Shown here: in pieces, positions 10,374 through 27,733 of the stretch
Layout: the number at the start of each line of letters is the position of its first letter
How positions within the stretch are numbered: the stretch's first letter is position 1
DNA from: Streptomyces populi
GTDB taxonomy: Bacteria; Actinomycetota; Actinomycetes; Streptomycetales; Streptomycetaceae
DNA: 64,000 bases
Reading direction: 5' to 3'
Assembly: GCF_002911015.1 (NCBI RefSeq)
Contig: NZ_KZ626846.1
Location: 62,001-126,000, forward strand
Made by a program: the position numbers and the translations under genes
Notes under the pieces: generated by a model
The model's database searches: none
Told to the model about the DNA's origin: nothing
Seen by the model: the letters and a program-made list of their open reading frames with translations, nothing else

Positions 10374-11102
10374 GTGAGGATCCAAGAGCGTACGGGGGCG
10401 GGCAACGGCCGTTCCGCCGGGTCGGCGCAACCGGCGATCGGTGAGCGTCTGCCCACCCCGCCTCGCGAGCGCAAACCCGCACTGGCCGCCCTCGCGGTGC
10501 TCCTCATCCTCGTCGGCGCGCTCGGCGCGACCATGCTGGTGCTGCGTGCCGGTGACCGGGTCGAGGTCGTGAAGGTGACGAGCGACATCCAGGCCGGCGA
10601 GTCCGTGGGCGACCACGTGATCTCCGTGCTGGTCGCGGACGACGCCTCCATCAACTACGTCCCGTGGGCACAGATCGGCGAGCTCAAGAAGCTCAAGGCC
10701 AAGTCCCCGATCTACAAGGGGACCGTGGTCATCGGTGAGATGTTCGCCGAGGGGGCCGAACTGCCCGCCGGCAAGGTCTCCGTGGGCGTCTCCCTGAAGG
10801 AGGGCCAGTACCCCGCGGGCATCAAGCCCGGTGACACGGTGGCCGTCTACCGCGTCGGCGACACCGGATCGAGCGGCAGCCGCGGTTCGTCGAACGCGAC
10901 GGGCTCCTCCGGTTCCTCGGGCGCGGACAACAGCCTCATCGTCGAGCGGGCGAAGGTCAGTTCGGTCAAGAGCGACTCGGACAGCACGATCAGCAGCACC
11001 AACCTGCCCGTCACGCTGATCCTGGACAGCGGTCAGGCGGCGGCCGTCACCGCCGCGGCCTCGGCGGGCCAGGTCGCCCTCGTCATCGTTCCCGGCAACT
11101 AG
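10374..11102 (+). CDS. cpaB: CpaB/RcpC-like pilus assembly protein with SAF domain
   Basis: A 242-residue protein with a single membrane segment near residues 34-57 (ALAALAVLLILVGALGATML) and an outside SAF-like domain starting 'VEVVKVTSDIQAGE', the hallmark of CpaB/RcpC and FlgA relatives. A Ser/Gly-rich loop (GSSGSRGSSNATGSSG) interrupts the C-terminal half. CpaB-like proteins sit in the envelope and help assemble or gate the Tad pilus; in a Gram-positive there is no secretin, so it may contact peptidoglycan instead. GTG start with GGGGAGC upstream. It is the first gene of the Tad operon and is followed after 20 bases by the TadZ-like ATPase. Confidence 0.85.
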   Translation: MRIQERTGAGNGRSAGSAQPAIGERLPTPPRERKPALAALAVLLILVGALGATMLVLRAGDRVEVVKVTSDIQAGESVGDHVISVLVADDASINYVPWAQIGELKKLKAKSPIYKGTVVIGEMFAEGAELPAGKVSVGVSLKEGQYPAGIKPGDTVAVYRVGDTGSSGSRGSSNATGSSGSSGADNSLIVERAKVSSVKSDSDSTISSTNLPVTLILDSGQAAAVTAAASAGQVALVIVPGN

Positions 11103-11122: not shown

Positions 11123-11983
11123 ATGGCGCTCATCGCCCTCGCCGCAGACAAGGGTTCCCCCGGGGTCACCACCGCCGCCGTGGCGCTCGCGGCGGTCTGG
11201 CCCCGCCGGGTCCTGCTCGCCGAGACCGACCCGGCCGGCGGCGACCTCGTGTACCGCAGCGCGGCGGCCCACGGCGGCCCGCTGAACCCCAACACCGGCA
11301 TGCTGTCGATCGCGGCGACCGCCCGGCGCGGTCTCGTGCCCGACCAGCTCTGGGACCACGTACAGCCGTTGAGCGGCGGCCTCGAGGTCCTCGTCGGCCT
11401 CGGGATGTCCGAGCAGGCCGCCGGTCTCGCCGGACTCTGGCCCACCCTGGGCCGGGCGTTCGCCCAGCTCGCCGACTCCCCGGACGCGCCCGCCGACGTC
11501 ATCGCCGACTGCGGCCGGATCAGCGGGGACACCCCCGCCGCCGAACTCTTCCCGCACGCCGCCCTGGTGCTCCTGCTGGCCCGCACCGAACCCGAGTCCA
11601 TCGCCCGCGTCCGCGACCGCGCCGCGGCCCTGTCCGCCAAGCTGCACGGCGGCCCGCGCGGCGCCGGCGGACTCGCCACCCCGTTCATCGGCGTCGTCCT
11701 CGTCGCCGACCCGGGCGACTCCGCCAAGCTCGTCCACCAGGTCAACGACATGCTCGTCGCGGCCCAGACCGGAGCCCGCGTCGTCGGGACGATCGCCGAC
11801 GACCCGGCCGGCGCCGCCCAGCTCGCCGGCCGCCGGCGCGGCCGCCTCGACAAGTCGTTGCTCATCCGCTCGGCCCGCAAGGTGACCGCGGACCTGTACC
11901 AGCAGTACGGCGCCGCCTGGTCCGCACCCGCGGACGGACCCCGTGCCGGGCAGGGACAGCCCGCCGCCGGAGCCGGCCGGTGA
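11123..11983 (+). CDS. tadZ: TadZ/CpaE-like ParA-family ATPase
   Basis: A 286-residue cytoplasmic protein of the MinD/ParA class that would localise the Tad apparatus at its assembly site. The N-terminus carries a deviant Walker A (ADKGSPGVTTAAVALA), followed by LLAETDPAGGDL, equivalent to the switch region, and VIADCGRISGD, equivalent to Walker B. The usual second Lys and final Ser/Thr arrangement of the P-loop is altered (KGSPGVTT), as is common in CpaE/TadZ proteins, so ATP hydrolysis may be weak. The stop overlaps the GTG of tadA in a GTGA, which implies coupled translation. Confidence 0.85.
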   Translation: MALIALAADKGSPGVTTAAVALAAVWPRRVLLAETDPAGGDLVYRSAAAHGGPLNPNTGMLSIAATARRGLVPDQLWDHVQPLSGGLEVLVGLGMSEQAAGLAGLWPTLGRAFAQLADSPDAPADVIADCGRISGDTPAAELFPHAALVLLLARTEPESIARVRDRAAALSAKLHGGPRGAGGLATPFIGVVLVADPGDSAKLVHQVNDMLVAAQTGARVVGTIADDPAGAAQLAGRRRGRLDKSLLIRSARKVTADLYQQYGAAWSAPADGPRAGQGQPAAGAGR

Positions 11984-13290
11984 CCGCCGTCGACCACCAG
12001 CTGGTCAAGCGGTTCCGGCAGGACGCCGGTGACCGCATCTCCGAACAGCGCCGCGAGGACCAGGTCCGCGGCGTCACCCCGATGTCCGGCGAGGACGAAC
12101 GGCACTACGCCCGTGCCGTCATCGCCCAGATACTCGAGGACCACGCCCGCACCGAGATCAACCTCGGCCGCACCCCGCTCGACGCGGAGACCGAGGAGCA
12201 GTACGCGGCCGCCGTCCACGCCGCGCTCTTCGGCGTCGGCCGTCTCCAGCCGCTGCTCGACGACCCGGAAGTCGAGAACATCGACATCAACGGGTGCGAC
12301 GAGGTCTTCATCGGCTACGCCGACGGCCGGGAGGCGAAGGGGGACCCCGTCGCCGAGACCGACGAGGAACTCGTCGAGCTGATCCAGGTCCTCGGCGCCT
12401 ACTCGGGTCTGTCGTCCCGGCCCTTCGACTCCGCGAACCCGCAGCTCGACCTCAGGCTGCCGGACGGTTCCCGGCTCTCCGCCGTCATGGACGTGACCCG
12501 CCGCCCGGCGCTGTCGATCCGCCGCGCCCGCCTCGGCAAGGTCTTCATGTCCGACCTCGTGGGCAACGGCACGCTGGCCCCCGAGGTCGCGCACTTCCTC
12601 GCCTGCGCCGTCCGCGCCCGCAAGAACATCATGATCGCGGGAGCGACGAACGCGGGAAAGACGACCCTGCTGCGCGCCCTCGCCAACGAGATCCCGCCGC
12701 ACGAGCGCCTCATCACCGTCGAGCGTGCCCTGGAGCTCGGCCTCGACACCTTCGCCGAACTGCACCCGAACGTCGTGGCGTTCGAGGAGCGGCTGCCCAA
12801 CTCCGAGGGCCAGGGCGCCATCACGATGGCCGAGCTGGTGCGCCGATCGCTGCGCATGAACCCCTCGCGCGTCATCGTCGGCGAGGTCCTCGGCGACGAG
12901 ATCGTGACGATGCTCAACGCGATGTCGCAGGGCAACGACGGCTCGCTGTCCACGATCCACGCGAACAGCTCCAGCGAGGTCTTCAACCGCATCTCCACGT
13001 ACGCGCTCCAGGCGAGCGAGCGGCTGCCCATCGAGGCCAGCCAGATGCTCATCGCGGGCGCGGTGAACTTCGTGGTCTTCATCCAGCGCCGCAACGGCTA
13101 CGAGTCCGGCGGCCGGCTCCAGCGCATGGTGACCTCCGTGCGCGAGGTGAACGGCGTCGACGGACGGGTGCTGTCCAGCGAGGTGTTCGCGGAGGCCCCG
13201 GACGGCCGGATCGTCCCGCACGCGCCCATCGCCTGCCTCGACGAACTCGTCGCGCAGGGCTACCGGCTGCCCGGCAGCGGGAATTGGTGA
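11980..13290 (+). CDS. tadA: TadA/CpaF-family secretion ATPase
   Basis: A 436-residue hexameric traffic ATPase that powers Flp pilus assembly from the cytoplasmic face. The N-terminal domain contains the typical 'DDPEVENIDINGCDEVFI' stretch. The Walker A is GATNAGKTT at about residues 221-229, followed by ITVERALELGLD, an Asp-box-like region, and the Walker B block RVIVGEVLGDEIVTML. A His-box-like ST-HANS segment (SLSTIHANSSSE) follows. This matches CpaF/TadA rather than PilB ATPases. It overlaps tadZ upstream and tadB downstream by four bases each (GTGA), marking a tight operon. Confidence 0.95.
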   Translation: MTAVDHQLVKRFRQDAGDRISEQRREDQVRGVTPMSGEDERHYARAVIAQILEDHARTEINLGRTPLDAETEEQYAAAVHAALFGVGRLQPLLDDPEVENIDINGCDEVFIGYADGREAKGDPVAETDEELVELIQVLGAYSGLSSRPFDSANPQLDLRLPDGSRLSAVMDVTRRPALSIRRARLGKVFMSDLVGNGTLAPEVAHFLACAVRARKNIMIAGATNAGKTTLLRALANEIPPHERLITVERALELGLDTFAELHPNVVAFEERLPNSEGQGAITMAELVRRSLRMNPSRVIVGEVLGDEIVTMLNAMSQGNDGSLSTIHANSSSEVFNRISTYALQASERLPIEASQMLIAGAVNFVVFIQRRNGYESGGRLQRMVTSVREVNGVDGRVLSSEVFAEAPDGRIVPHAPIACLDELVAQGYRLPGSGNW

Positions 13291-14375
13291 CGACGATGAC
13301 CCAGGACATGACGGCGGCCACGGTCGCCGCGGTGCCGCACCTGACCACGGCCGTGGCGCCGGGCGGCACCCCGGACACGGCCCCCCTCGCGGGGCTCGGC
13401 ACCCCGGACACGATCCCGCTCGCGGCCCTCGACTCGCTCGGCACCATGGGCGGACTGTTCTCCCTGCCCGTGCTGTACGCGCTCACCTGCGGGATCGCCG
13501 TCGGCGGCGGCCTCGCGCTGTTCGTGATCGCGGTACGCGGACTGCCCGCCAAGCCCGAGCACGAGCGGCAGAAGGCGAGCGAGCGGGCCAACGAGCTGCT
13601 CCGCTTCGCCGGCCGGCGCGGCTCGACCGCCGCCATCGCCGGTCTCGTCGTCCTCCTGCTCACCCGCTGGGCCGTCGCCGGACTCGCGGCCGGCGTCCTC
13701 GTCTTCTTCTGGGACAAGCTCTTCGGCGGCGCCTCCGAGGAGAAGGCCGCGATGCGCCGGGTCGAGGCCCTGGCCTCCTGGACCGAGTCGCTGCGCGACA
13801 CCATCGCCGGCGCGGTCGGCCTGGAGCAGGCCATCCCGGCCTCGGCACGCGCCTCCGCCCCCGTACTGCGGCCGCACCTGGACGCGCTGGTGGACCGGCT
13901 GCGCTCCCGGACACCGCTCCCCGACGCCCTTCAGCAGCTCGCCGACGAGATCGACGACGCGTCCGCGGACATCATCGTGGCGGCCCTCATCCTCAACGCG
14001 CGGCTGCGCGGGCCGGGGCTCCGCCAGGTGCTGGGCGCACTGGCCAAGTCGGCGCGCGAGGAGGTCGACATGCGCCAGCGCGTGATGGCCCAGCGCGCCT
14101 CGACCCGCCGCTCGGTGCAGATCGTCGTCGCGGTGTCGATCGCCTTCGTCCTCGGACTGTCCATCTTCAACCGTCAGTTCGTCGAGCCGTACGGCACGGC
14201 GGTCGGACAGCTCGTCCTCGCCTGTGTCTGCGGCCTGTTCGGCCTCGGCTTCTGGTGGCTGCGCAAGCTGTCCACGATCGAGACCCCGGAACGCTTCCTG
14301 GTACGGGACGAGGCGTCCGTGCGGTTCGTGCGGCCCCGTACACCGGTTTCCGGGGACGAGGCGGTGCGCCGATGA
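13287..14375 (+). CDS. tadB: TadB-like pilus platform protein (T2SSF domain)
   Basis: An integral membrane protein of about 362 residues forming half of the platform that couples TadA to the pilus. The first membrane segment is near LPVLYALTCGIAVGGGLALF, followed by others around AAIAGLVVLLLTRW and VAGLAAGVLVFFW. The cytoplasmic T2SSF domain (EALASWTESLRDTIAG to ILNARLRGPG) comes next, and two C-terminal helices end at FGLGFWWLRK. GTG 13287 overlaps the tadA stop in a GTGA and was chosen; ATG 13296 is an alternative. The N-terminal 50 residues are an unusual Thr/Pro/Ala-rich extension of low complexity. Confidence 0.9.
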   Translation: MTTMTQDMTAATVAAVPHLTTAVAPGGTPDTAPLAGLGTPDTIPLAALDSLGTMGGLFSLPVLYALTCGIAVGGGLALFVIAVRGLPAKPEHERQKASERANELLRFAGRRGSTAAIAGLVVLLLTRWAVAGLAAGVLVFFWDKLFGGASEEKAAMRRVEALASWTESLRDTIAGAVGLEQAIPASARASAPVLRPHLDALVDRLRSRTPLPDALQQLADEIDDASADIIVAALILNARLRGPGLRQVLGALAKSAREEVDMRQRVMAQRASTRRSVQIVVAVSIAFVLGLSIFNRQFVEPYGTAVGQLVLACVCGLFGLGFWWLRKLSTIETPERFLVRDEASVRFVRPRTPVSGDEAVRR

Positions 14376-15295
14376 ACCTGACCATGCCGATCCTGATCGG
14401 CGCCGTCCTGGGCCTCGGCGTCTACGCCCTGGTCCGCGCGCTCATGCCGTCCCGGCGCAGCGCGGTCGCGCAGGTCGCCCGGATCGACGCGATGCGGGCC
14501 CGCGGGGCGGCGTACGAGTCCGCGCACCAGGGGCAGCGGGACAGCGGGCGCTTCGCGGGACTGCGCGCCCAGGTCGGTGCGCGCGTCGCCGAGCTCTACC
14601 TCCAGCAGGGCTGGGAACAGCGCTCGCTGCGCGCCGACCTGGCCGTCCTGGACCGGAGCTGGGAGAGGTTCCTCGCGACGAAGGTGCTGCTGGCCGCGGC
14701 CGGTGTCTTCTTCGGCCCGTTCCTCTTCGCCGTCGTCTGGACCCTCGGTGTCGGGCGCAGTCCGATCATCCCGGTCTGGCTCGCGCTGCTGTTCGCGGTC
14801 GTCTTCTTCTTCCTGCCCGATCTGGAGGTGCGGCGGGACGCGGTGGACCGGCGCCGCGACCTGCGGCGGGTGATCGGCGCGTATCTGGACCTCGTGTCGA
14901 TGAGCCTGGCCGGCGGGCGCGGTCTGCCCGAGGCGCTGATGGCCGCCGCCGAGATCTCCGACGGCTGGGCCACGCAGCGCATCCGCAACGCGCTCGCCGA
15001 CGCCCGGATCACCGGTACCAGCCAGTGGCAGGCGCTCGGCTCGCTCGGCGAGGAACTCGGCGTCGAGGAGCTCAAGGACCTGTCCGCCTCCCTGGCGCTC
15101 GTCGCGGACGACGGCGCCAAGGTGCGCGAGTCGCTCGCCTCGCGCGCCGAGACCATGCGCCACCGCGAGCTGTCCGAGATCGAGGGCAGCGCCGGCGAGA
15201 AGTCGCAGTCGATGCTCGTCGCCCAGCTGCTGCTGTGCGCCGGCTTCCTGGTGTTCCTGATCTTCCCGGCGGCGATGCGCGTGTTCCAGGTCTGA
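14372..15295 (+). CDS. tadC: TadC-like pilus platform protein (T2SSF domain)
   Basis: A 307-residue partner of TadB in the inner platform. An N-terminal membrane helix (MPILIGAVLGLGVYALVRAL) is followed by a basic linker, two central helices (VLLAAAGVFFGPFLFAVVW and IIPVWLALLFAVVFFFLPDL), a T2SSF domain with the typical 'MSLAGGRGLPEALMAAAE' and 'GVEELKDLSASLALVADDG' blocks, and a last helix ending at IFPAAMRVFQV. The ATG overlaps the tadB stop (ATGA). Two different F-domain proteins side by side are the norm in Tad systems. Confidence 0.92.
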   Translation: MNLTMPILIGAVLGLGVYALVRALMPSRRSAVAQVARIDAMRARGAAYESAHQGQRDSGRFAGLRAQVGARVAELYLQQGWEQRSLRADLAVLDRSWERFLATKVLLAAAGVFFGPFLFAVVWTLGVGRSPIIPVWLALLFAVVFFFLPDLEVRRDAVDRRRDLRRVIGAYLDLVSMSLAGGRGLPEALMAAAEISDGWATQRIRNALADARITGTSQWQALGSLGEELGVEELKDLSASLALVADDGAKVRESLASRAETMRHRELSEIEGSAGEKSQSMLVAQLLLCAGFLVFLIFPAAMRVFQV

Positions 15296-15346: not shown

Positions 15347-15598
15347 ATGAACGGACGGAACTTCAGCACCGGGATCCCGGGGGTGGACTTCCTGATCACC
15401 TTCCTCCAGGGACGGGTGCAGCGCGCCCGCTCCGGCGAACTCGACCGGGGGGCGTCCGCGGTCGAGTGGGTCATCATCTCCGCCGTCGTCGTCGCCATCG
15501 TCGGCGTGGTCGCCGCGATCATCAACGCGGCGCTGAGCGACGGCGCCAACAAGGTCGGCAACTGCATCAAGGGCGCCGACGCGGGCAAGACCTGCTGA
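15347..15598 (+). CDS. flp: Flp-type pilin precursor
   Basis: An 83-residue prepilin, the likely main subunit of the pilus. The leader runs to Gly35, giving the cleavage site RG/ASAVEW with Glu40 at mature position +5, as required for type IV pilin processing and packing. The hydrophobic stem is VIISAVVVAIVGVVAAIINAAL, and the mature form would be only about 48 residues, typical of Flp pilins. Two Cys near the C-terminus (GNCIKG and the final Cys) may form a disulfide. The leader of 35 residues is long compared with most Flp prepilins. A prepilin peptidase gene lies at 26996-27733, 11 kb downstream. Confidence 0.92.
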   Translation: MNGRNFSTGIPGVDFLITFLQGRVQRARSGELDRGASAVEWVIISAVVVAIVGVVAAIINAALSDGANKVGNCIKGADAGKTC

Positions 15599-15618: not shown

Positions 15619-16074
15619 GTGAGCGAGGACCGAGGGGTACGCCGCTGGGCGCGCCGCAGGGTGGAGGCGGCCTCCGCCCGCGGCGACTCCGGCATGACCG
15701 CGATCGAGTTCGTGCTGCTCACTCCGGTGCTGTTCTTCATGATCTTCGCGACGGTGCAGTTCGCGCTGTACTTCTTCGCGGACCATGTCGCCCAGGCGGC
15801 GGCCCAGGCGGGCGCCCGCAAGGCCCGCGCCACGGCGGACGCGCAGCCCGGCGCGTGGCGCGGGGAGGCGGGCGACGTCGTCGACAGCTACATCCGCCAG
15901 CTCGGCCCGAAGCTGGTGCTGTCCCCGGACGTGAGGATGCTCCAGCCGGAGCAGGACACCGTGGGCGTCGAGATCACGGCGAGGGTCCCGGCGGTGTTCC
16001 CGGGCCTGGACCTGACCGTGCACGCGCGGTCGTCGGGCCCGGTGGAGCGGTTCGTGAAGGAGGAGGGGCCGTGA
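15619..16074 (+). CDS. tadE: TadE-like pseudopilin 1
   Basis: A 151-residue minor pilin. A basic leader ends at Gly25, and the motif SG/MTAIEF places Glu30 at +5, followed by the hydrophobic segment FVLLTPVLFFMIFATVQFALYFF. This agrees with the TadE family, which is cleaved by the same peptidase as the pilin and helps start or tip the fibre. GTG 15619 is used because the overlapping ATG at 15615 reads another frame. It overlaps the next pseudopilin gene in a GTGA. Confidence 0.9.
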   Translation: MSEDRGVRRWARRRVEAASARGDSGMTAIEFVLLTPVLFFMIFATVQFALYFFADHVAQAAAQAGARKARATADAQPGAWRGEAGDVVDSYIRQLGPKLVLSPDVRMLQPEQDTVGVEITARVPAVFPGLDLTVHARSSGPVERFVKEEGP

Positions 16075-16517
16075 GGGGGCCGAGGGCCCTGCTCGGGGCC
16101 GTGCGCGACCGCGTGGGCGGCGACCACCGTGACCGGGGGCTGTCCACCATCGAGGTGGTCATCCTGGCGCCGGTGATGATCCTCTTCATTCTCGTGCTGG
16201 TGGCGTTCGGGCAACTGGTCGACGGCCGCGGGGCGCTGGACGGCGCGGCCCGGGACGCAGCTAGGGCCGGCTCGATCCAGAAGGACCACGCGACCGCCAT
16301 GGCCGAGGCACGGAAGGCGGCCGAGGCCGACCTCGGGGACGTCTGCTCGGGGCCGGTGAACGTGACGCAGACCAGCACGGGCTTCGAGCCGGACACGCTG
16401 TTCACCGTCGAGGTGAGCTGCGAGGTACGGGGCCTGGCGATGATCGGCCTCGACGTGCCGACCACTCTCCGGTCGTCCTTCAGCTCCCCTCTCGACCCGT
16501 TCCGGAGGACGGCATGA
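16071..16517 (+). CDS. TadE-like pseudopilin 2
   Basis: A 148-residue second minor pilin. The leader ends at Gly23 (RG/LSTIEV), with Glu28 at +5 and the hydrophobic stretch VVILAPVMILFILVLVAFGQ. The mature domain has two Cys (DVCSGP and VSCEVR) that are likely to pair outside the cell. GTG start in a GTGA overlap with the previous gene; its own stop overlaps the ATG of the TadG-like gene. The two TadE proteins differ in sequence outside the stem, so they are probably not interchangeable. Confidence 0.9.
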   Translation: MRGPRALLGAVRDRVGGDHRDRGLSTIEVVILAPVMILFILVLVAFGQLVDGRGALDGAARDAARAGSIQKDHATAMAEARKAAEADLGDVCSGPVNVTQTSTGFEPDTLFTVEVSCEVRGLAMIGLDVPTTLRSSFSSPLDPFRRTA

Positions 16518-17041
16518 AGCGGGGCTCCGCAGCGGGGGCGGGGACGAGGCCGTGCTCCTCCGTGGGGGAGGGCGTGAAGCCGTTCCCCGCCGTACGCGGC
16601 TGGGTGGCCGCGCGCCGGGGGCGGCTGGACGACCGCGGGTCGGGCGCCGGCGCGGTCATCATCTTCGCGCTCGTCTTCCTCTCGCTCTCGGCCTTCGTCA
16701 TCGACGGCGGCATGTCCATCTCCAAGCGGGAGCGGGCCGCGGACATCGCCGAGCAGGCGGCCCGTTACGCCGCCGAGGACATCGACCTCGAATCCCTCTA
16801 CGAGAACGAGAACGGCCCGGCGCCCATCAACTTCGAGAACTGCGGTGCCCGGGTGAAGGCGTTCGCCCGCGAGATGGGCATGTCCGGCGCGGACATCGCC
16901 GCCACCCACTGCGTGACCGCCGACGCCGACCAGGTCGAGGTGGAGGTCCAGCTGACCTATTCGCCGGTCTTCACGGGCATGTTCTACGGCGGAGACGTGA
17001 CGGTCCACGGCCGGGCGGTGGCGGAGAACGAGGTGGGCTGA
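16514..17041 (+). CDS. TadG-like pilus-associated protein
   Basis: A 175-residue protein and the last gene of the Tad operon, starting in an ATGA overlap. A basic N-terminus of 42 residues precedes RGSGAGAVIIFALVFLSLSAFVIDGG, the membrane segment. The position where pilins carry Glu +5 is not acidic here, which fits the TadG-like class (N-terminal 'Flp pilus-assembly TadG' region) and suggests that it stays in the membrane. Two Cys (ENCGAR and THCVTA) lie in the outside domain. The protein is much shorter than Gram-negative TadG, which usually carries a von Willebrand A domain. Confidence 0.82.
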   Translation: MKRGSAAGAGTRPCSSVGEGVKPFPAVRGWVAARRGRLDDRGSGAGAVIIFALVFLSLSAFVIDGGMSISKRERAADIAEQAARYAAEDIDLESLYENENGPAPINFENCGARVKAFAREMGMSGADIAATHCVTADADQVEVEVQLTYSPVFTGMFYGGDVTVHGRAVAENEVG

Positions 17042-17851: not shown

Positions 17852-17885
17852 GTCCGTTCCCCCTCCTGGAGTCCTGATGTGCCGG

Positions 17886-18826: not shown

Positions 18827-18881
18827 GGCTCTCCTGGCGGTGGTCGGTCCGATGGGAGGGGACGATGGTCTGGGCGCGGCT

Positions 18882-19241: not shown

Positions 19242-19296
19242 CAGTGGGTGACTCCCGGGACGAGACCTGTGGACGAAGCCGCGAAACCCGGAGGCA

Positions 19297-19503
19297 CTAC
19301 CGCCGCCGGGGTGCGGCGACCGTTCCGGTGCGTATGGCGCGGAGGAGGTGGTCGACCGGGGCCGGGGTGGTGCTGAGGACGACACCGGGGTCGTCGGATT
19401 CGCGGAGGTGCAGGGCGGCAGCGGTCGAGGCGAGCTCGACGCAGGCGTTTCCTTCGCCGCCGCCGGAGAAGGAGGACTTCTGCCAGGTGTAGGGGGTGCT
19501 CAT
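19297..19503 (-). CDS. DUF397 family protein, small partner of the XRE regulator
   Basis: A 68-residue DUF397 protein: TWQKSSFSGGGEGNACVELA is the family's signature opening, followed by ALHLRESDDPG and a C-terminal helix. In Streptomyces these small proteins are encoded next to XRE regulators with a DUF5753 domain (as in whiJ-type pairs) and are thought to counteract or modulate them. Here the regulator gene ends eight bases upstream. ATG 19503 is preferred to ATG 19515, which would add four residues. Confidence 0.88.
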   Translation of the reverse strand: MSTPYTWQKSSFSGGGEGNACVELASTAAALHLRESDDPGVVLSTTPAPVDHLLRAIRTGTVAAPRRR

Positions 19504-19511
19504 GCCGCGCC

Positions 19512-20363
19512 TCACAGTTCCTTTGTCAGCCGGTGGATGAAGTCGCGCGACCGCTCGGGCTCGAACGACACGCTCCTCACCTTACGGAACAGCGATCTGA
19601 GACGGTCGAGTTGAGCTTCCGAATCGATGAACGCCGTGCCGTACGGAGCATCGCGCACGAAGGTGTCCAGGCGGGGAACGGCGCCACCCATGTGCACCAT
19701 GGCGCTGCCGGCCCCGGCGAATCCGTCGAGGTCGTAGGGAATGACCCGCACGGTCACGTGGTCGGCCTCGGAGAGCTCCAGGATCCTGCCCAGCTGCACC
19801 CGAGTGGCCGCTCGGTCGCCGACCCTGATCCGCAGCGCCGACTCGTGGATCACCGTCTCGTACGGAATCGTCCTCGGCCCTTCCAGGATCGTGCGACGTC
19901 GCATCCTGTGCCGCACCCATGACTCCAGCTGATCCGGGCGCAGTTCAGGAGTCGTGAACGAGAACAGCGCGCGGGCGTAGTCCTCGGTCTGGAGGAGCCC
20001 GGGTACGTGGAGGAAGTCGACGTCGCGGCGGAACGTGGCGTGGTGCTCCAGCTCCGCGAGGTCCAGGAAGGGCGCGGGGAGGATTCCGCGGTACTCCTCC
20101 CACCAGCCGCGGGTGCGATCCGTGGCCAGTGCTGCCAGGCCGTCGATCAAAGCCTCGTCGAGGCAGGCGTAGTGGGCGGCGAGGCGGCGAAGGCGTGCTT
20201 CGCTGACACCCGACAGTCCGGACTCGACATGGGTCATCTGGGACGAGTTCACTCCGAGGAGCGCGGCTGTCTCCCGCGCCGTCATGCCTGCCGACTCGCG
20301 CATCCTGCGCAGCTCCGCGCCCAGGCGCAGTTGTCGAGCGGTGGGGTGGTTCCGCAGCGGCAT
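19512..20363 (-). CDS. XRE-family transcriptional regulator with DUF5753 domain
   Basis: A 283-residue DNA-binding regulator. ATG 20363 has GAAGGAG six bases upstream; an upstream ATG at 20378 would be less well placed. The helix-turn-helix is near residues 15-65 (LGAELRRMRESAGMTARETA, then SSQMTHVESG). The rest is DUF5753, recognised by 'FLDLAELEHHATF', 'VPGLLQTEDYARAL' and 'ITYETVIHES'-like blocks, ending FVRDAPYGTAFIDSE. It pairs with the DUF397 gene immediately downstream. Such pairs are abundant in Streptomyces and influence development or antibiotic genes; here control of the adjacent toxin island is possible but not shown by the sequence. Confidence 0.9.
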   Translation of the reverse strand: MPLRNHPTARQLRLGAELRRMRESAGMTARETAALLGVNSSQMTHVESGLSGVSEARLRRLAAHYACLDEALIDGLAALATDRTRGWWEEYRGILPAPFLDLAELEHHATFRRDVDFLHVPGLLQTEDYARALFSFTTPELRPDQLESWVRHRMRRRTILEGPRTIPYETVIHESALRIRVGDRAATRVQLGRILELSEADHVTVRVIPYDLDGFAGAGSAMVHMGGAVPRLDTFVRDAPYGTAFIDSEAQLDRLRSLFRKVRSVSFEPERSRDFIHRLTKEL

Positions 20364-20752
20364 CGACGGCTCCTTCACTGCAACTCGGCGCTCTGGGTGC
20401 CTCGTTCGGGTGTCAGGCTACGGCAACGGATTGTGCTGCCTCGATTTTGAGGTCTGCGTTCGGTGACGCGAAGGTCGCTCTGTGGCGTCCGGAGACCCGG
20501 AAGCGCGCCACTCCGTCCTGCCGTGACGGCTGTGACACCGCCACCGCACCCGCGGCCGGCCATCGACTCCCCCCATCGGAAACGGGGTTCACCCGTGCCC
20601 GAAGGGGCCCGCGGCCCTGCGCCTGCACCGGCGGGACGGGGTGCCGCGGATCGGTGCCCGGGACGCGAGCCCGCTGCCACTCCCGTACGGCGGGCGGGGC
20701 GCGGCCGACGCGGAAGCCGGCCGGGGTCTCGTCCTGGTCCGCCCCGCGCTCC
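20364..20752. other. Intergenic region upstream of the XRE regulator
   Basis: No gene is supported. On the minus strand, near the regulator, an imperfect palindrome CCTCAAAATCGAGG (plus-strand 20438-20451) is followed by CACAAT and could be an autoregulatory operator with a -10 element. The left-over sequence is G/C-rich with several short hairpins and probably holds the terminator of the minus-strand gene ending at 20753. Confidence 0.35.
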
Positions 20753-21127
20753 TCAGACGGGCATGGCCCGGGCGTGCTGGTCCCGGAGCGCCGCCCAGGC
20801 CAGTTCCTGGGCCGGGCCGGGCATGGCGGGAGCGGGGTGGCCGGCCCTGTCGATGAGCACCAGGGCCGTGGCGATGAAACCGAGGCTCAGGGAACGGAGG
20901 ATTCCCTGGTCCGACGCGGTGAATCGGGCTACGGCCACTTCGGAGAGCTTCCGGAAGCGTTCGAAATCCACGACGCATTCACCGGCTGCGAGTGGTCCCA
21001 CTCCCGAGTCCGTCCGATAGATCCCCGAGAAGACGTCCGAACTGCCCTTGAAGGCGTGGGCGACCTCGGCGTCAGGGCACCAGATGTCGCGTCCGGGCAT
21101 GTCGCTCGAGTGGAACCTGAACTTCAC
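20753..21127 (-). CDS. Hypothetical small protein of the toxin island
   Basis: A protein of about 124 residues beginning VKFRFHSSDMPGRDIWCPDAEV at GTG 21127; a TTG at 21139 that overlaps the previous stop is another possible start. It has a helical C-terminal half (SEVAVARFTASDQG, then LSLGFIATALVLIDRAG). The opening 'DIWCPDAEV' and this second half recall DUF6086-type actinobacterial proteins, but this is a weak impression. The nine-base gap from the SitI3-like gene places it in the CdiA-toxin operon, as a second immunity gene or accessory factor. Confidence 0.6.
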   Translation of the reverse strand: MKFRFHSSDMPGRDIWCPDAEVAHAFKGSSDVFSGIYRTDSGVGPLAAGECVVDFERFRKLSEVAVARFTASDQGILRSLSLGFIATALVLIDRAGHPAPAMPGPAQELAWAALRDQHARAMPV

Positions 21128-21135
21128 TGGAGAAC

Positions 21136-21627
21136 TCAATCCATGTCCATGGTGTGGGTCTCCCGGCGATAGGGCCGGGGCGCGAGAGCGAGCCGATCCG
21201 CCGGCCAGAGATCGTCCCGTTCGTTGAGGCTCAGTTCGCCGTTCTTGCGGAGCAGCCAGACGACCTCGAACTGGTAGTGCAGTACGGCGTCGCCCTCGAT
21301 CCGGTCCAGCAGGGGTGCGATCAGGCGGATCATGTCGTTCTGCTGGTCCGAGGTGTCTGCCTCCTTGCCCATGCGGAAGCCGACGCCGACCGTCGGAGCG
21401 AACCCGAGATTCGTGACGACGGGGTCCCACGGCTGGGGTGGCCGCTGCTGGAGCACGCTGACGCACGTCTCACGACGGGTGTACGCGAAAACTCCCCTCT
21501 CCGTCAGTCGCTCCCCCGTGATCGATTCGTCGAACACGCCGGATTCCCTGCCGATCTCGGCGAGCCAGGATGCGACCTCGGATGCGGGTGACCGTGTCGC
21601 GATGTCGAGGTCATATTCGATTGCCAT
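21136..21627 (-). CDS. SitI3-family candidate immunity protein
   Basis: A 163-residue soluble protein with the typical SitI3-like opening MAIEYDLDIATRSPASEVA and the C-terminal block YQFEVVWLLRKNGELSLNE followed by RDDLWP. SitI3 was named for an immunity protein of a myxobacterial contact-dependent toxin exchange system, and the family is common beside Streptomyces toxins. The ATG at 21627 has AAGGGA upstream. It begins 20 bases after the CdiA-type toxin gene ends, the classic immunity position, so it probably neutralises that toxin in the cytoplasm. Confidence 0.82.
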   Translation of the reverse strand: MAIEYDLDIATRSPASEVASWLAEIGRESGVFDESITGERLTERGVFAYTRRETCVSVLQQRPPQPWDPVVTNLGFAPTVGVGFRMGKEADTSDQQNDMIRLIAPLLDRIEGDAVLHYQFEVVWLLRKNGELSLNERDDLWPADRLALAPRPYRRETHTMDMD

Positions 21628-21647
21628 GCGGAAAGATCCCTTGATTC

Positions 21648-23081
21648 CTACGGATAGAGGTGAACTATGTTGCCCTCGCGATCGATGACCATCACCTCCT
21701 TCAAGCCCTCCTTGGGCCAACTGTGGAACTGCTGTCGAAGAGCGCCCAGATCGGCTCCGCTGTCTCCGAGGTTCAGGACGACGCGCTCCGTCTGTCCCTT
21801 GTCGACCTTCTTCTCCACGGCCCGCCAGATGGAGCGGGGGTTGTCGGAGGTGGGGGCGTAGTTGTCGAATATCTTTCCTTCGACACGGAAGTCGGGTTTG
21901 GTTCCGTTGGGCATCTTCCCGGGAGACTGTTCGACGTCGTACCCCTGCCGGGCCAAGGTTTCGGCCGAGTGCACTTCCCGGCCTTTCGCGCGTATCGTCT
22001 CGGCGTCGTCGTTCTTGCTGAGGGATTCCGGATTCCCGCGAGGCTGGGCATGGGGGTCCGCCTCGCCCGACGGCTTGGTCCGGTCGACCTTGGCCGCCGT
22101 GTCCCAGTCGCCGCCCCCGCCCCCGCCCGAGCCGTCGGACGTCATGTCGACCCGGTCGGGCCCCATCGCGTCGTTCATGATGCCGGCCGCGCCGGCGCCC
22201 GCGATCGAGAGCCCGGCGGCGATCTGGGCCGCGGCCGCGACGTTGATGGGAATCCCGAGAGCCGCTCCGATCCCGGTCGCGTCCAGCAGGATGCCGCCGA
22301 CTTCCTCACCGGCCCCCAGCGCCGCCAGGCCGAGCCCTCCGAGCACGGCCAGCGTCGATGGGAGATCGTCCACCATGGCCTTGCCGATGGAGGCGAGGTC
22401 CGAGACGAGGACCTCACCCGCCTCCGTCAGCGCCTCTCCGACCTCGGAGGCGACGGAGTCCACGGCATCGCCGAACTTGTCCCATCGGGAATCGTGCATC
22501 CCGTCGTGGGTGATGGCGCGGTGGATGATCGCGGCAGCCCGGTCCGCGGCGTCGTCACGAACGCGCTCGGCCTCCCGCAGCAGGGCCTTCGCGTCATCGA
22601 GGTCACCCGCGGCGGCGTCCCGTTTCTTCTTCAGCCGCACCAGTTCGGGATCGTCGTCCTTGGTGTGCGGCGGAAGGTTCCCGATGCCCGTGACCGCCGA
22701 CCGGTGGTCGGCGTCCGCGTCCTTGGCCGCTTTCAACGCCTTGTCGGCCAGCTGCTGGGCGTGCTCGAGGGCCGAGGCCCAGTCGCCCGTGCTGCCGGGG
22801 CGGACGCGCGTGCCCATCGCGCTCGCGGCCTTGTCGTAGCGGTGGTAGGCCTTCCGCAGGGGTTTGATCGTGTCCTGCGCCGTGTCGCGGAAGGAGTCGG
22901 CCGCCTTGGACTTCCAGGACTCGACACCGCTCAGCGCCTCGACGTCGCCCGCTTCGCGCTGGATGTCGTTCGCCATCTCGCGGAGCGACTGTCCGAGCAG
23001 CGCGATCGCATCCGGGTCCCCCGGAACCGGATCGCCGTCCTCACCCAGTACGGACCACTCGTGGGCCGGTGGACGGCTCAC
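21648..23081 (-). CDS. WXG-type toxin with CdiA-like C-terminal nuclease domain
   Basis: A 477-residue polymorphic toxin. Residues 1-200 are helical, with a WXG-like turn (VESWKSKAADSFRDT). Residues about 240-307 are hydrophobic and Gly/Ala-rich (STLAVLGGLGLAALGAGEE through IAAGLSIAGAGAAG). A disordered Gly/Pro linker leads to the tip at about 360-477: 'HSAETLARQGYDVEQSP', KPDFRVEGKIFDNYAPT and 'KGQTERVVLNLGDSG', ending VHLYP. This matches the CdiA C-terminal tRNase family of contact-dependent inhibition systems, so cleavage of RNA in rival cells is likely. GTG 23081 overlaps the partner gene stop (GTGA). A SitI3-like immunity gene follows. Confidence 0.85.
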   Translation of the reverse strand: MSRPPAHEWSVLGEDGDPVPGDPDAIALLGQSLREMANDIQREAGDVEALSGVESWKSKAADSFRDTAQDTIKPLRKAYHRYDKAASAMGTRVRPGSTGDWASALEHAQQLADKALKAAKDADADHRSAVTGIGNLPPHTKDDDPELVRLKKKRDAAAGDLDDAKALLREAERVRDDAADRAAAIIHRAITHDGMHDSRWDKFGDAVDSVASEVGEALTEAGEVLVSDLASIGKAMVDDLPSTLAVLGGLGLAALGAGEEVGGILLDATGIGAALGIPINVAAAAQIAAGLSIAGAGAAGIMNDAMGPDRVDMTSDGSGGGGGGDWDTAAKVDRTKPSGEADPHAQPRGNPESLSKNDDAETIRAKGREVHSAETLARQGYDVEQSPGKMPNGTKPDFRVEGKIFDNYAPTSDNPRSIWRAVEKKVDKGQTERVVLNLGDSGADLGALRQQFHSWPKEGLKEVMVIDREGNIVHLYP

Positions 23082-23398
23082 GAGGGCCCCGGACCCTGTT
23101 CGGTCTTCGCGTCCTGCCGGCGCAGGGCGGCGGCGAGTTCCGCGTCGATGGCGTCGTAGCTCTTGGCCGCTTCCCAGGTGATCGTGCCGAGCGTCTCGAT
23201 CTGCTCGGCCAGGTCCTTGCGGTGGATCTTCCAATTGCTGGCGAATTCGTCGAACGCGTCGACGATGCGCTGGTTTCCCAGTTCTGCCGGCGAGAAGTCC
23301 TCGGCCGGGTTGGCTCGGTCGGTGAAGGAGTGGTAGATCCGCTGCAACGCGCGAGAACACTCGCGTATGCGCTGTGTGTCCGCCTTCAGATCGCTCAT
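23078..23398 (-). CDS. WXG100-like toxin partner protein
   Basis: A 106-residue helical protein, ATG 23398, with no signal peptide. It contains the region NQRIVDAFDEFASNWKIHRK that is conserved with the protein encoded at 17522-17851. The four-base overlap with the toxin gene indicates one-to-one production. By analogy with type VII exported LXG or WXG toxins, small helical proteins encoded just before the toxin bind its N-terminal helices and aid targeting to the export machine. No ESX machinery genes are in the window. Confidence 0.8.
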   Translation of the reverse strand: MSDLKADTQRIRECSRALQRIYHSFTDRANPAEDFSPAELGNQRIVDAFDEFASNWKIHRKDLAEQIETLGTITWEAAKSYDAIDAELAAALRRQDAKTEQGPGPS

Positions 23399-23792
23399 CG
23401 ACGCCCCGTGGTCCGACGCGCGGTTCCGTCTGCGCGCACTCTGTGTTCATGCCAACCTTGTGACTCTATGCGAGCCCGGTTCGGCCCGGGTATAGCCGAA
23501 TTCAACGGCAGGCAAAGGGCGCTGTGCTCGATCGGAAGCGTCGCACCCCAACAGGCCTGTCGCGCACGGTGCGTGAAGGCGGTCCCGCGGACGGTGTGAG
23601 AGCGGTGGGGGTCAACGGGGGAGGCGGGTGCCGGGGGTGAAGAGGCAACTCGGTCGTGCCGGACGGTCGGTGAGGAGACAGGCGGGGTGGGGGCGATGTC
23701 CCCTGCCGGGCCTTCGACACCCTCTTTAGACTCTCAGTAGGCTCGGTTCACCCCGAACCGACATCTTCCCCATACGACCCCAGGACACCGCC
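23399..23792. other. Divergent intergenic region between the toxin operon and the LysM-BTAD gene
   Basis: No gene is supported. The right half carries the promoter described at 23714-23743. The left half, read on the minus strand, has TATACC and TAGAGT hexamers that could be -10 elements of the toxin operon, and a short CCCGG/CCGGG hairpin near 23477-23492. Confidence 0.4.
23714..23743 (+). promoter_or_regulatory. Probable promoter of the LysM-BTAD gene
   Basis: TCGACA at 23714-23719 is separated by 18 bases from TAGGCT at 23738-23743, a fair match to the Streptomyces housekeeping consensus. The start point would be near 23750, giving a leader of about 43 bases. An overlapping TAGACT at 23727 is a second possible -10 element. 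Confidence 0.5.
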
Positions 23793-26700
23793 ATGGCGCG
23801 ACGCACCAACTCCAGTCCGACGGGCGGCTCGCCGGGTCCGAGGAATCGGACGCCGCAGCCCCTGCCCCGGCGTCGTCGGACGTTCGGGGACTTCGTGAAG
23901 GCGTTCGGGGCGCTCGTCGCCCTGCTGGTGCTGCTCGTCGGCGTGCCCGGCGCGCTGGTGGCGGTCGTGGGCTGGCCGCTGCCGCACGGGACGCCCTCGC
24001 TGGACTGGCTCCAGCAGGAGATCACCGTCGGCACGTTCCTCCACGTCCTGACGGTCCTCGTGTGGCTCGCGTGGGCGCAGTTCGCCGCGTGCGTCCTCGT
24101 CGAGATGAAGGCCGCGCTCTCGGGCGTCGGGCTGCCGAACCGCGTGCCGGGCGCCGGGCCGAGCCAGTTGCTCGCCCGTCAGCTCGTCGCGGCGCTCCTG
24201 CTCGTCGGCGCGGCCGCCGCGAGCTTCGCACCGGGCCTGTCCCAGCTCGGCCAGGGCCTGGAGGGCAGCCGGCACGGCTCCGTCGCCGCCGCCCGGCACA
24301 CGCCGGGCGGGCTGCTCGGGCAGCAGCAGGAGCGGACCGCCGCCGACGCCGCCGCGGCGGTCGCCGAGCAGGCCGACGCCGCCTCCCGGGCCGCCTCCCG
24401 GCCGGACGGCGGAGCCTCCGCCCGGCACGGCGACACGAAGTACTACCGGATCCAGCCCCCCGAGGGCCGTCACCACGACTCCCTCTGGGAGATCGCGCAG
24501 CGCCACCTCGGCGACGGGCGCCGGTACAAGGAGATCTACGAGCTCAACAAGGACCGTACGCAGCCCGACGGGTCCAAGCTGTCCGAGGCCAGCCTCATCC
24601 GGCCCGGCTGGATCATGGAGATGCCCGGCGACGCCCACGGCGGCGAGCTCGTCGAGATGCCCGACGCGAAGCCCGGGATCCCGGAGCAGGTCCAGCAGCA
24701 GATCCACGACTACGCGAAGACCGGCGACCACCGGCAGGCCGACGGCGAGCAGGGCGGCGGCGCCGGGCGGCAGAGCGGCCGGAACGACCAGGTCGACCGG
24801 GACACCGGGCACTTCCGCGTGCCCCAGCAGCGCGCCGGCGGCGACCACGGCCAGGAGCGCGGGCGCGCCTCCGCCGAGGAGGCCTCCGTGGACTCCCACC
24901 ACGGACAGGGATCGCACGCGGCCTCCGACGGGAGCGGCTTCGGGCTGCCCGAGGCCCTCGTCGGCGCGCCCCTCCTCGCCGCGGGCCTCCTCGGCGCCCT
25001 CGGCCGGCGCCGCCGCCAGGCCCTGTGGCAGTCGGCGCTCGGCGCCGTCGGCGAACGGCGCGGCACGGAGCCGCCGGTTCCCACCGGATCCGCCGCGGAC
25101 GCCCAGGACGCGCTGCTCGTCGGCGCCGACCCCGAGGGCGTACGCCTCCTCGACCTGTCGCTGCGCGGACTCGCCGCCGCCCTCGCCGCCGAGTCGCGCC
25201 CGCTGCCGACCGTCTACGCGGCCTGGCTCGGCGGCAACGGCGATCTGCACCTCCAGCTCGCCCAGCCGGCCGGCAAGCCGCCCGCGCCGTGGCAGCTCGG
25301 CCAGGACCAGACGTTCTGGATGCTGGCGCGCGCGGACGCCGAGCGGTACGAGGAGACCGACACCGCCGCCCCCTACCCGGGCCTCGTCAGCCTCGGCACC
25401 ATGGACGACTCACGGCTCCTGCTCAACCTGGAGGCCGTGCCCGGCATCGTCTCCCTGAGCGGAAGCGCGGCCGACCGCGCGGGCGTCTTCGCCTCCGTCG
25501 CCGCCGAACTGGCCACCAACGGCTGGTCGGACCGCATGACGATCACCCTCGTCGGCTTCGGCGAGGACCTGACCCCGCTCGCGCCCAACCGGCTGCGCCA
25601 CCTCGACGACGTCGAGGCGCTCATGGAGACCATGGAGGCCGAGACGCGGCAGCGGCGCGGAGCGCTGGGCGCCGCCGGACACGACTCCGTGCTCACCGGC
25701 CGCACCGGGCCCGCCCAGCACACCCGTTGGGCCCCGCACCTCGTCCTCCTCGCCGCCGAACCGTCCTCCGCCGACGCCCTCAGGCTCGCCGAACTCGCCT
25801 CCGACGCGGCACGGTTGGGGATCGGCTGTCTCGTCGGCACCGAGTCCGGCGAACTGCCGGGCGCCGCCTGGGAGATGGAGATCACCGGCGAGGGCAAGCT
25901 GCTCGCACCCCTCCTCGGCCTCGAACTCGACGCGCAGATGCTGCCGGTCGCCCAGCAGCGGGCGGTCGTCGAACTCTTCGTGGAGGCGGACCCGGAGGGC
26001 GGGCCCGACGGACCGAACGACTCCCCGCCGTTCCTCGTCGACGTCAGCGAGCAGGGCCGGCCCGCCGTGTACGCCCGGCTCGTCGGCGCGTACGAGATCA
26101 TCGGCCTGGAGACGCCCGAGGGCGAACGCAGTCCGCTGCTGCACGAGGCGCTGGCGCTGCTCCTGCTGCACCGCGAAGGGGTGCACCCGCGCGTGCTGTC
26201 CTCCGCGCTGTGGCCGCGCGGTGTCACCGACGACGTGCGGGACGCGCTCGTCGAGCGGTTGCGCGGCTGGCTCGGCGACGACCCCGACGGCACGCCCCGT
26301 CTCGGCACCGACGCGACCGGACGGCTCACGCTCGCCAAGTCCGTCGTCTCCGACCTGGACGTGCTGCGCTCCCTCTACCACGAGGCGACGCAGGGCAAGG
26401 GCGTCGACAGCCGGGTGGTCCGCGGGCGGCTGCTCACCGACGCGCTCGTCCTCGTCCGCGGTCCGCTGCTCGCCGACCGTCCCGAGGGGCGTTACGGCTG
26501 GCTCACCCACGAGATCATCGACGCCCGGCTGCCGCTGCTCGTGGCGGACATCGGCCTCGCGCTCTCCGCGTTCCACCTGGAGAAGGGCCGGGCGGAGAAG
26601 GCGATCGAGGCGCTGAACGCGTCGATGAACTCGGCGCCGACGGACGAGCGGCTGTGGAACGAACTGCTGCGCGCGACCCACGCGACGGGGGACGAGGACG

Positions 26701-26822
26701 AGGTGAAGCGGCTCGCCGCGGACCTGGTGGCCCGCAGCGGGGCGCGGGGGCTGCCGCCCCGGACGGAGGCGCTGCTCGACGAGCTGCTGCCGACCTGGCG
26801 GAGCGGCGCGGCGGTGGGCTGA
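23793..26822 (+). CDS. Membrane protein with LysM and BTAD (SARP-type TPR) domains
   Basis: A 1009-residue multidomain protein. Hydrophobic segments occur near residues 36-62, 75-105 and 128-150. A LysM domain at about 216-283 (DSLWEIAQRHLGDGRRYKEI, then LIRPGWIMEMP) would bind peptidoglycan. After a Gly/Gln/Arg-rich linker comes another hydrophobic stretch near 385-405 (LPEALVGAPLLAAGLLGALG) followed by a large domain. The C-terminal part, about 800-1000, is the BTAD TPR module of SARP-type regulators (LLTDALVLVRGPLLADRPEG, then AFHLEKGRAEKAIEALN). No obvious DNA-binding OmpR-type domain precedes BTAD in usual form; a winged-helix-like segment (LSSALWPRG) is present. It may sense the cell wall and control or scaffold the Tad pilus encoded nearby. 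Confidence 0.82.
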   Translation: MARRTNSSPTGGSPGPRNRTPQPLPRRRRTFGDFVKAFGALVALLVLLVGVPGALVAVVGWPLPHGTPSLDWLQQEITVGTFLHVLTVLVWLAWAQFAACVLVEMKAALSGVGLPNRVPGAGPSQLLARQLVAALLLVGAAAASFAPGLSQLGQGLEGSRHGSVAAARHTPGGLLGQQQERTAADAAAAVAEQADAASRAASRPDGGASARHGDTKYYRIQPPEGRHHDSLWEIAQRHLGDGRRYKEIYELNKDRTQPDGSKLSEASLIRPGWIMEMPGDAHGGELVEMPDAKPGIPEQVQQQIHDYAKTGDHRQADGEQGGGAGRQSGRNDQVDRDTGHFRVPQQRAGGDHGQERGRASAEEASVDSHHGQGSHAASDGSGFGLPEALVGAPLLAAGLLGALGRRRRQALWQSALGAVGERRGTEPPVPTGSAADAQDALLVGADPEGVRLLDLSLRGLAAALAAESRPLPTVYAAWLGGNGDLHLQLAQPAGKPPAPWQLGQDQTFWMLARADAERYEETDTAAPYPGLVSLGTMDDSRLLLNLEAVPGIVSLSGSAADRAGVFASVAAELATNGWSDRMTITLVGFGEDLTPLAPNRLRHLDDVEALMETMEAETRQRRGALGAAGHDSVLTGRTGPAQHTRWAPHLVLLAAEPSSADALRLAELASDAARLGIGCLVGTESGELPGAAWEMEITGEGKLLAPLLGLELDAQMLPVAQQRAVVELFVEADPEGGPDGPNDSPPFLVDVSEQGRPAVYARLVGAYEIIGLETPEGERSPLLHEALALLLLHREGVHPRVLSSALWPRGVTDDVRDALVERLRGWLGDDPDGTPRLGTDATGRLTLAKSVVSDLDVLRSLYHEATQGKGVDSRVVRGRLLTDALVLVRGPLLADRPEGRYGWLTHEIIDARLPLLVADIGLALSAFHLEKGRAEKAIEALNASMNSAPTDERLWNELLRATHATGDEDEVKRLAADLVARSGARGLPPRTEALLDELLPTWRSGAAVG

Positions 26823-26995: not shown

Positions 26996-27733
26996 GTGGA
27001 TCTCGACCTCTGGCTCACCGTCGTCGCCGCGCTCTGGGGCGCGGCGGCGGGGTTCCTGGTGCCCCGGCCCGCGTACCGCCTCGCCGTCGACCCGGACGAG
27101 CCGTGGCGGGACCGCTGTCCCGAGGGGCAGCCGATCACCGGGGCCGCGCGCGGGTGGCTGGGGCCCGCCCGTTCCCCGGGCGGAATCCGTTACGGCCCGA
27201 GCGTCCTCCTCGTCCCGCCGGTCACCGCCCTGCTCTGCGCCGGGCTCGCCCTCGCGACCGGTACGCGTCCGGAGCTGGGGGTCTGGCTGCTGCTGGCGCC
27301 GCTCGGCGTCCTGCTCGCCGTGGTGGACTTCCGGGTCCAGCGGCTGCCGGACGCGCTGACCCTGCCGCTCGCGGCGGCGGCGCTGCTGCTGCTCGGGGTG
27401 GCCGCCGCGCTGCCCGAGCACGCGGGGGAGTGGCCGACGGCGCTGTTCGGGGCGCTCGCGCTCGGGGGCGCGTACTTCGTGCTGTTCCTCGTCAACCCGA
27501 ACGGCATGGGCTTCGGCGACGTGAAACTGGCCCTCGGCCTCGGCGCGGTGCTCGGCTGGTACGGGTGGAGCGTGGTCGTCCTCGGGACCTTCGCCGGGTT
27601 CCTGTTCGGCGGGCTGTACGGGGCGGCGCTGGTGATCGCGCGGCGCGCGGGGCGCAGGACGTCGATCCCGTTCGGGCCGTTCCTGATCGCGGGGGCCTAC
27701 GTGGGACTTCTGATCGGGGCCTACGCGGCCTGA
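26996..27733 (+). CDS. Prepilin peptidase, TadV-type (A24 family)
   Basis: A 245-residue polytopic membrane aspartic peptidase that would cleave the leader of the Flp pilin and TadE pseudopilins. The two catalytic Asp are Asp111 in LLAVVDFRVQRLPD and Asp175 in the GMGFGDVK motif (GxGD type). The Cys-rich N-terminal methyltransferase domain of PilD is absent, as in TadV and archaeal homologs, so N-methylation of the pilin is not expected from this protein. GTG 26996 follows GGGGGAAAGC. It is the only processing enzyme for the Tad locus in this window. Confidence 0.9.
   Translation: MDLDLWLTVVAALWGAAAGFLVPRPAYRLAVDPDEPWRDRCPEGQPITGAARGWLGPARSPGGIRYGPSVLLVPPVTALLCAGLALATGTRPELGVWLLLAPLGVLLAVVDFRVQRLPDALTLPLAAAALLLLGVAAALPEHAGEWPTALFGALALGGAYFVLFLVNPNGMGFGDVKLALGLGAVLGWYGWSVVVLGTFAGFLFGGLYGAALVIARRAGRRTSIPFGPFLIAGAYVGLLIGAYAA

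What the first reader, a model, noticed from the sequence alone, without database searches (positions are those of the whole stretch)
23793..26822. Membrane LysM-BTAD hybrid next to a prepilin peptidase
BTAD modules normally belong to soluble SARP-type regulators, whereas LysM binds peptidoglycan and needs to be outside the membrane. This protein has several hydrophobic segments, LysM near 216-283 and BTAD near 800-1000, so it could carry cell-wall information across the membrane to a regulatory or scaffold domain for pilus assembly.
Basis: partly seen in the sequence, partly recalled or inferred. Interest (0 to 1): 0.6.

Follow-up and report, generated by a model that had tools for sequence, protein, structure and literature searches.

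The report
Wall-anchored platform protein of Tad pili
In Streptomyces and many other actinobacteria, one branch of pilus-building machines carries a hitherto undescribed membrane protein that probably grips the cell wall outside and, inside the cell, holds a dead motor domain and a regulator-like domain that no longer looks able to bind DNA, so it is more likely a structural platform than a gene switch.

Summary
ORF 23793-26822 (1009 aa) has three N-terminal membrane segments, an external LysM domain, a fourth membrane segment ending in RRRR, and a C-terminal BTAD; a prepilin peptidase follows. (1) A full Tad locus (cpaB-tadZABC-flp-tadE-tadE-tadG, 10374-17041) lies upstream in the window, separated only by a toxin island. 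(2) The protein (here 'LBT') is the conserved last gene of this branch of Tad loci: in 53 of 80 regions from diverse actinobacteria it follows tadG on the same strand, often with a 4-bp overlap. A TadA tree puts all 70 LBT-bearing rows on one side of a 100%-supported branch. (3) Between TM4 and BTAD lie a degenerate FtsK/EccC-type P-loop domain without Walker A and a winged helix, so the C-terminus is a complete SARP module. Here four of six AfsR DNA-contact positions are changed (one to an acid in 79 of 80 Streptomyces orthologues); accessory and plasmid LBTs keep a basic helix. Best reading: a wall-anchored scaffold/coupling subunit of the Tad machine, FimV-like in layout, rather than a DNA-binding regulator in this clade. 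An EssC-like type VII ATPase lies within 40 kb of LBT in 36 of 43 genomes. No function was tested.

The parts
23793..26822 (+). LBT protein (LysM - degenerate FtsK/EccC-like - wHTH-BTAD), 1009 aa
   Evidence: ORF, GC3 0.96; homologues
23913..24239 (+). three N-terminal transmembrane segments (about residues 41-59, 85-103, 131-149)
   Evidence: hydrophobicity and charge; present in nearly all 47 diverse members
24432..24641 (+). LysM domain, residues ~214-283, predicted outside the membrane
24936..25013 (+). fourth transmembrane segment and RRRR stop (residues ~382-407)
   Evidence: motif found in 77 of 80 Streptomyces orthologues; R407 invariant across 47 members
25365..25997 (+). degenerate FtsK/EccC-type P-loop domain without Walker A (residues ~525-735)
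   Evidence: hhalign probability 90.5, 60 column shuffles at most 1.07; fold search hits EccC/EssC/FtsK on a modest model
26025..26351 (+). winged-helix domain of SARP type (residues ~745-853); recognition-helix contacts degenerate
   Evidence: profile match to EmbR and AfsR; helix comparison
26352..26792 (+). BTAD / TPR domain (residues ~854-1000)
   Evidence: Pfam BTAD E 6.8e-8
26996..27733 (+). prepilin peptidase (A24 family)
   Evidence: Pfam E 6.9e-16; same strand next to LBT in 77 of 77 Streptomyces loci where it is held
10374..11102 (+). CpaB/RcpC
   Evidence: Pfam RcpC E 1.4e-6, 0.1 bit under cut-off
11123..11983 (+). TadZ-like
   Evidence: position and own profile
11980..13290 (+). 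TadA ATPase
   Evidence: Pfam T2SSE E 9e-30
13287..14375 (+). TadB
   Evidence: Pfam T2SSF
14372..15295 (+). TadC
   Evidence: Pfam T2SSF
15347..15598 (+). Flp pilin candidate
   Evidence: size, position, hydrophobic segment
15619..16074 (+). TadE
   Evidence: Pfam TadE E 2e-13
16071..16517 (+). second TadE-like (start approximate)
16514..17041 (+). TadG-like
   Evidence: Pfam Tad E 4.6e-8

Best explanation
LBT is a dedicated subunit of one branch of actinobacterial Tad (type IVc pilus) machines. Three N-terminal helices and TM4 hold it in the cell membrane and LysM binds peptidoglycan outside, so the machine is fixed to the thick wall of a bacterium without an outer-membrane secretin. Inside, a catalytically dead FtsK/EccC-type domain, a winged helix that no longer reads DNA and a TPR-type BTAD form a docking platform for cytoplasmic partners (TadA/TadB/TadZ and perhaps the nearby EssC-like ATPase). 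Shown: gene order, branch-specific presence, domain matches, missing Walker A, lost DNA-contact residues. Predicted from sequence: topology. Inferred: wall binding, partner docking, scaffold role.
For: Operon membership: in 53 of 80 regions from diverse genomes LBT follows tadG on the same strand; with the start nearest the tadG stop chosen, 28 of 53 have a 4-bp overlap and 49 lie within 100 bp. It is last in the Tad operon on Brachybacterium, S. cellulosae and S. clavuligerus plasmids. TadA tree: 70 LBT+ rows in a 72-row group split off by a 100%-supported branch; 34 rows of other Tad classes lack LBT. Own genome: three Tad loci, one LBT. Topology by charge. Degenerate FtsK/EccC domain: hhalign 90.5 against at most 1.07 for shuffles, Foldseek EccC E 2e-6 and VIA Z about 12. 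Recognition helix: charge -0.2 and contact score 2.1/6 in the chromosomal clade, against +2.3 and 4.6/6 for the genome's own SARPs.
Against: No functional data. LBT-bearing loci were chosen by LBT, so the tree contrast rests on the separate PF00482 sample of 20 genomes. Fifteen of 80 LBT regions show no Tad genes, nine of them beside an EssC-like ATPase instead. In many Streptomyces LBT is separated from tadG by up to about 10 kb, so it is not always in the tad transcript. The structure model of the middle domain is weak (pLDDT 58.6).
Confidence: 0.6

Rival explanations
1. A membrane-tethered transcription regulator, ToxR/CadC-like in principle: LysM senses wall state or pilus assembly, and the inner wHTH-BTAD acts as a SARP activator of tad or neighbouring genes.
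For: wHTH and BTAD match EmbR (E 2e-16) and AfsR (E 2e-11) over both domains; CadC, ToxR and TcpP also match weakly. Accessory/plasmid LBTs keep a basic helix, charge +3.5, score 4.0/6.
Against: In this clade positions equivalent to AfsR R87, T88, S91 and K95 are D817, A818, E821, G825; the S91 position is acidic in 79 of 80 Streptomyces orthologues. The gene behaves as a machine gene by operon position.
Confidence: 0.2
2. A coupling subunit for a type VII-like system: the EccC-like domain pairs with the nearby EssC-like ATPase, so WXG100-type toxins and the Tad machine share a platform.
For: EssC-like ATPase (FHA-like plus FtsK domains) within 40 kb of an LBT in 36 of 43 genomes, 31 within 7.5 kb; beside LBT without Tad in nine regions; WXG100 gene next to it and T7SS-signal toxins flank the tad genes.
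Against: EssC-like genes also occur without LBT, and accessory LBT loci have none nearby. Neighbourhood is not interaction; toxin islands are common insertions.
Confidence: 0.13
3. A random domain fusion with no constrained role, kept by hitch-hiking near tad.
For: None beyond lack of functional data.
Against: Same architecture and position across many families and on plasmids; invariant residues in every domain.
Confidence: 0.02

Closest known systems
PAGK_2369 of Propionibacterium (Cutibacterium) acnes plasmid pIMPLE-HL096PA1 (PMC3666418, table of Tad genes)
   Same: gene inside a Tad locus with Pfam LysM and BTAD; the only earlier mention found in the held library
   Different: listed there as 'TadB', with no comment found on the architecture, the pseudo-ATPase domain or a role; its sequence was not compared here (record not held)
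FimV/HubP polar organisers (PMC12918733)
   Same: LysM outside, membrane segment, acidic cytoplasmic part, C-terminal TPR; linked to type IV pili; LysM binds peptidoglycan
   Different: proteobacterial, one membrane segment, no wHTH or FtsK-like domain; no FimV model matched
AfsR/EmbR SARP regulators
   Same: complete wHTH plus BTAD module
   Different: no membrane or LysM part; LBT carries the module at its C-terminus and this clade lost most DNA-contact residues
EccC/EssC/FtsK ATPases
   Same: fold of the middle domain; EccC5 DUF domain is among the closest structural hits
   Different: no Walker A; not a motor by sequence
ToxR/CadC/TcpP membrane regulators
   Same: wHTH in a membrane protein; weak profile match
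   Different: single membrane segment, no BTAD, no LysM (from general knowledge)

Membership tests
Tad pilus system component | encoded in a Tad locus across distant genomes | tested here: met
Tad pilus system component | needed for Flp pilus assembly | not testable with these tools
   needs mutants
SARP (AfsR/EmbR) family | winged helix followed by BTAD | tested here: met
   profile matches over both domains; alignment with own-genome SARPs
SARP (AfsR/EmbR) family | conserved DNA-contact residues of the recognition helix | tested here: not met
   four of six positions changed in this protein; positions from PMC10936776
SARP (AfsR/EmbR) family | binds promoter repeats and activates transcription | not testable with these tools
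   needs binding assays
FtsK/EccC ATPase family | P-loop domain of FtsK/EccC type | tested here: met
   hhalign with shuffle, reversal and unrelated-profile controls; fold search on a modest model
FtsK/EccC ATPase family | Walker A motif | tested here: not met
   no Walker A in the aligned place; 2 pattern hits among 90 ORFs, both in one protein and elsewhere
FimV/HubP | LysM outside, TM, acidic cytoplasmic part, C-terminal TPR | tested here: met
   (cytoplasmic part pI 4.87); topology is predicted
FimV/HubP | FimV-domain sequence | tested here: not met
   no FimV model among NCBIfam matches at E 0.01

The most novel reading that the evidence does not exclude
LBT joins a Tad pilus machine to an EssC-like type VII ATPase, making a composite wall-anchored apparatus that delivers WXG100/T7SS-signal toxins to neighbouring bacteria through or alongside the pilus.
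Probability: 0.1. Interest if true: 0.9.

Novelty: new variant of a known kind. Interest (0 to 1): 0.6.

Why it matters
Gram-positive bacteria have no outer membrane and so no place for the secretin that guides Tad pili in Gram-negatives; how their pili are fixed in a thick wall is open. A branch-specific subunit with a wall-binding domain outside and a docking platform inside is a direct, testable candidate. It also shows a SARP regulator module that appears to have been turned into a structural part in one clade, and it points to a recurrent genomic link between Tad pili and EssC-like type VII ATPases.

Tried and rejected
AlphaFold of residues 404-1009 failed for want of a diverse alignment (pLDDT 48); only the 510-740 model was used, with caution. 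Two viral-contig scans gave no useful relatives. An isoelectric-point test of the winged helix did not separate LBT from SARPs; residue-level comparison was used instead, and a first motif search for the helix failed. CpaB presence does not distinguish LBT-type Tad loci: other classes have it too. Hypothesis that LBT is always in the tad operon: rejected, 15 of 80 regions lack Tad and six more have it in another orientation. A phylum search with the diverse alignment failed on the server; a single-protein search was run instead.

Full report
Observation. The ORF 23793-26822 is coding and conserved. Its BTAD is secure (residues 854-969, E 6.8e-8). LysM is weak in this one sequence but secure in the family. 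Four hydrophobic segments peak at 41-59, 85-103, 131-149 and about 382-403. The N-tail carries nine positive and one negative residue, the first loop none positive, and RRRR follows TM4, so the positive-inside rule puts LysM outside and everything after TM4 inside. No dedicated topology program was available.

Setting. The window holds a Tad locus from CpaB (10374) to TadG (17041). An island on the other strand follows, with a CdiA_C toxin carrying a T7SS signal, then LBT, then the prepilin peptidase and mqnC. In 80 Streptomyces loci the order cpaB-tadZABC-flp-tadE-tadE-tadG-[gap]-LBT-prepilin peptidase-mqnC recurs as far as each locus reaches. Where tadG is within the fetched flank (56 loci) the gap runs from 106 bp to nearly 10 kb; the peptidase lies downstream on the same strand in 77 of 77.

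Beyond Streptomyces. LBT closes the Tad operon on plasmids of Brachybacterium avium, S. cellulosae and S. clavuligerus. Of 80 regions taken around LBT hits in whole genomes, 53 have LBT downstream of the Tad genes on the same strand, 6 have the Tad operon in another orientation, 6 have only TadZ/TadA-like genes or a truncated view, and 15 have no Tad genes. With the LBT start nearest the tadG stop chosen, 28 of the 53 show a 4-bp overlap and 49 lie within -20 to +100 bp; the choice of start favours overlap somewhat. As a contrast set, Tad loci were found by T2SSF pairs in 20 genomes and fetched. In a tree of 106 TadA rows the 70 LBT+ rows fall in one 72-row group behind a branch of 100% support; the two LBT- rows in it have a partial LBT (L213) or one on the same contig about 25 kb away (L221, L142). 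The 34 rows of other Tad classes have none within the fetched regions. The label needs 3 changes against a shuffled mean of 30, but LBT+ loci were selected by LBT. The own genome has three Tad loci and one LBT. Weaker relatives occur in other classes of the phylum.

Middle domain. Residues 525-735 of 47 diverse members, compared by hhalign with FtsK/EccC domains from relatives, give probability 90.5 and E 1.4e-6 over 157 columns; 60 column-shuffled versions reach at most 1.07, the reversed alignment 0.04, unrelated Tad profiles under 1; TadA, a true P-loop protein, gives 87 against FtsK as a positive control. Walker A is absent from the aligned place. A modest AlphaFold model of 510-740 (pLDDT 58.6, pTM 0.58) finds EccC first in Foldseek (E 2e-6), and EssC, FtsK and the EccC5 DUF domain at VIA Z 12.1-12.3. 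Sequence and fold agree; the model alone would not suffice.

C-terminus. The family profile matches EmbR (E 2e-16) and AfsR (E 2e-11) across winged helix and BTAD. AfsR contacts DNA through R87, T88, S91, R92, R94 and K95 of the recognition helix (PMC10936776). Here these are D817, A818, E821, R822, R824, G825. Fourteen chromosomal-type LBTs average charge -0.2 and 2.1 of 6 contacts; 32 accessory ones +3.5 and 4.0; 13 SARPs of the own genome +2.3 and 4.6 (one SARP window is probably misplaced). The rank tests (p 2e-7 and 4e-5) treat related sequences as independent, so only the direction should be used. The S91 position is acidic in 79 of 80 Streptomyces orthologues.

EssC-like neighbour. All nine Tad-less regions from family f18 carry a multi-domain FtsK-type ATPase near LBT, and eight f19 Tad loci have one just downstream of LBT. 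Those compared are relatives (39-57% identity) of a 1544-aa protein ending 3.9 kb before the window, which has an FHA-like domain, FtsK domains and a WXG100 gene beside it. Among 43 sampled genomes with both, 36 have them within 40 kb, 31 within 7.5 kb. The chance figure printed there assumes independent genomes and is not used. EssC-like genes also occur without LBT.

Interpretation. Gene order and branch specificity make LBT a Tad-system protein with high probability (about 0.85, my estimate). Within that, loss of DNA contacts, a dead P-loop domain, LysM and TPR favour a scaffold or coupling role in this clade (0.6 overall) over a membrane-tethered regulator (0.2). FimV/HubP is the closest functional analogy; its LysM binds peptidoglycan (PMC12918733). 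In P. aeruginosa RcpC/CpaB spans the periplasm to the secretin (PMC12307814); LBT could serve the wall-anchoring need where there is no secretin, which is inference.

Prior knowledge. In the held library the only mention of a LysM-BTAD protein in a Tad locus is one table row for C. acnes (PMC3666418). No paper linking Tad, EssC and LysM was found. The library omits most subscription journals.

Noticed in passing
window 17095-23450 (- strand): Toxin island between tadG and LBT: CdiA_C toxin with T7SS signal, DUF5753 regulator, small proteins. Relatives of the toxin's N-terminal part are found in 22, and of the 109-aa protein (17522-17851) in 41, of 80 Streptomyces loci, so the gap looks like an insertion hotspot.
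   Followed up: partly
window 4105-8655: RHS-repeat protein with AHH nuclease domain and WXG100/T7SS-signal N-terminus upstream of the Tad locus; relatives in 32 of 80 loci.
   Followed up: partly
L278:8489-13117 (3.9 kb before window start): EssC-like ATPase with FHA-like domain, WXG100 gene (13242-13628) and T7SS-signal protein (14065-15348) beside it.
   Followed up: partly
own genome, L195 and L196: Two further Tad loci of other classes, without LBT.
   Followed up: partly
L109-L188: CpaB is present in 51 of the 53 same-strand LBT-type Tad loci, although CpaB/RcpC has been described as absent from Gram-positive tad loci (PMC8467076).
   Followed up: partly
L174, L177, L179, L183, L185: Short TadZ-TadA-like-LBT arrangements without TadB/C/E in family f3; function unknown.
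   Followed up: no
L129, L136, L150, L154, L159, L166: LBT transcribed in the other orientation, beside a Tad operon.
   Followed up: no
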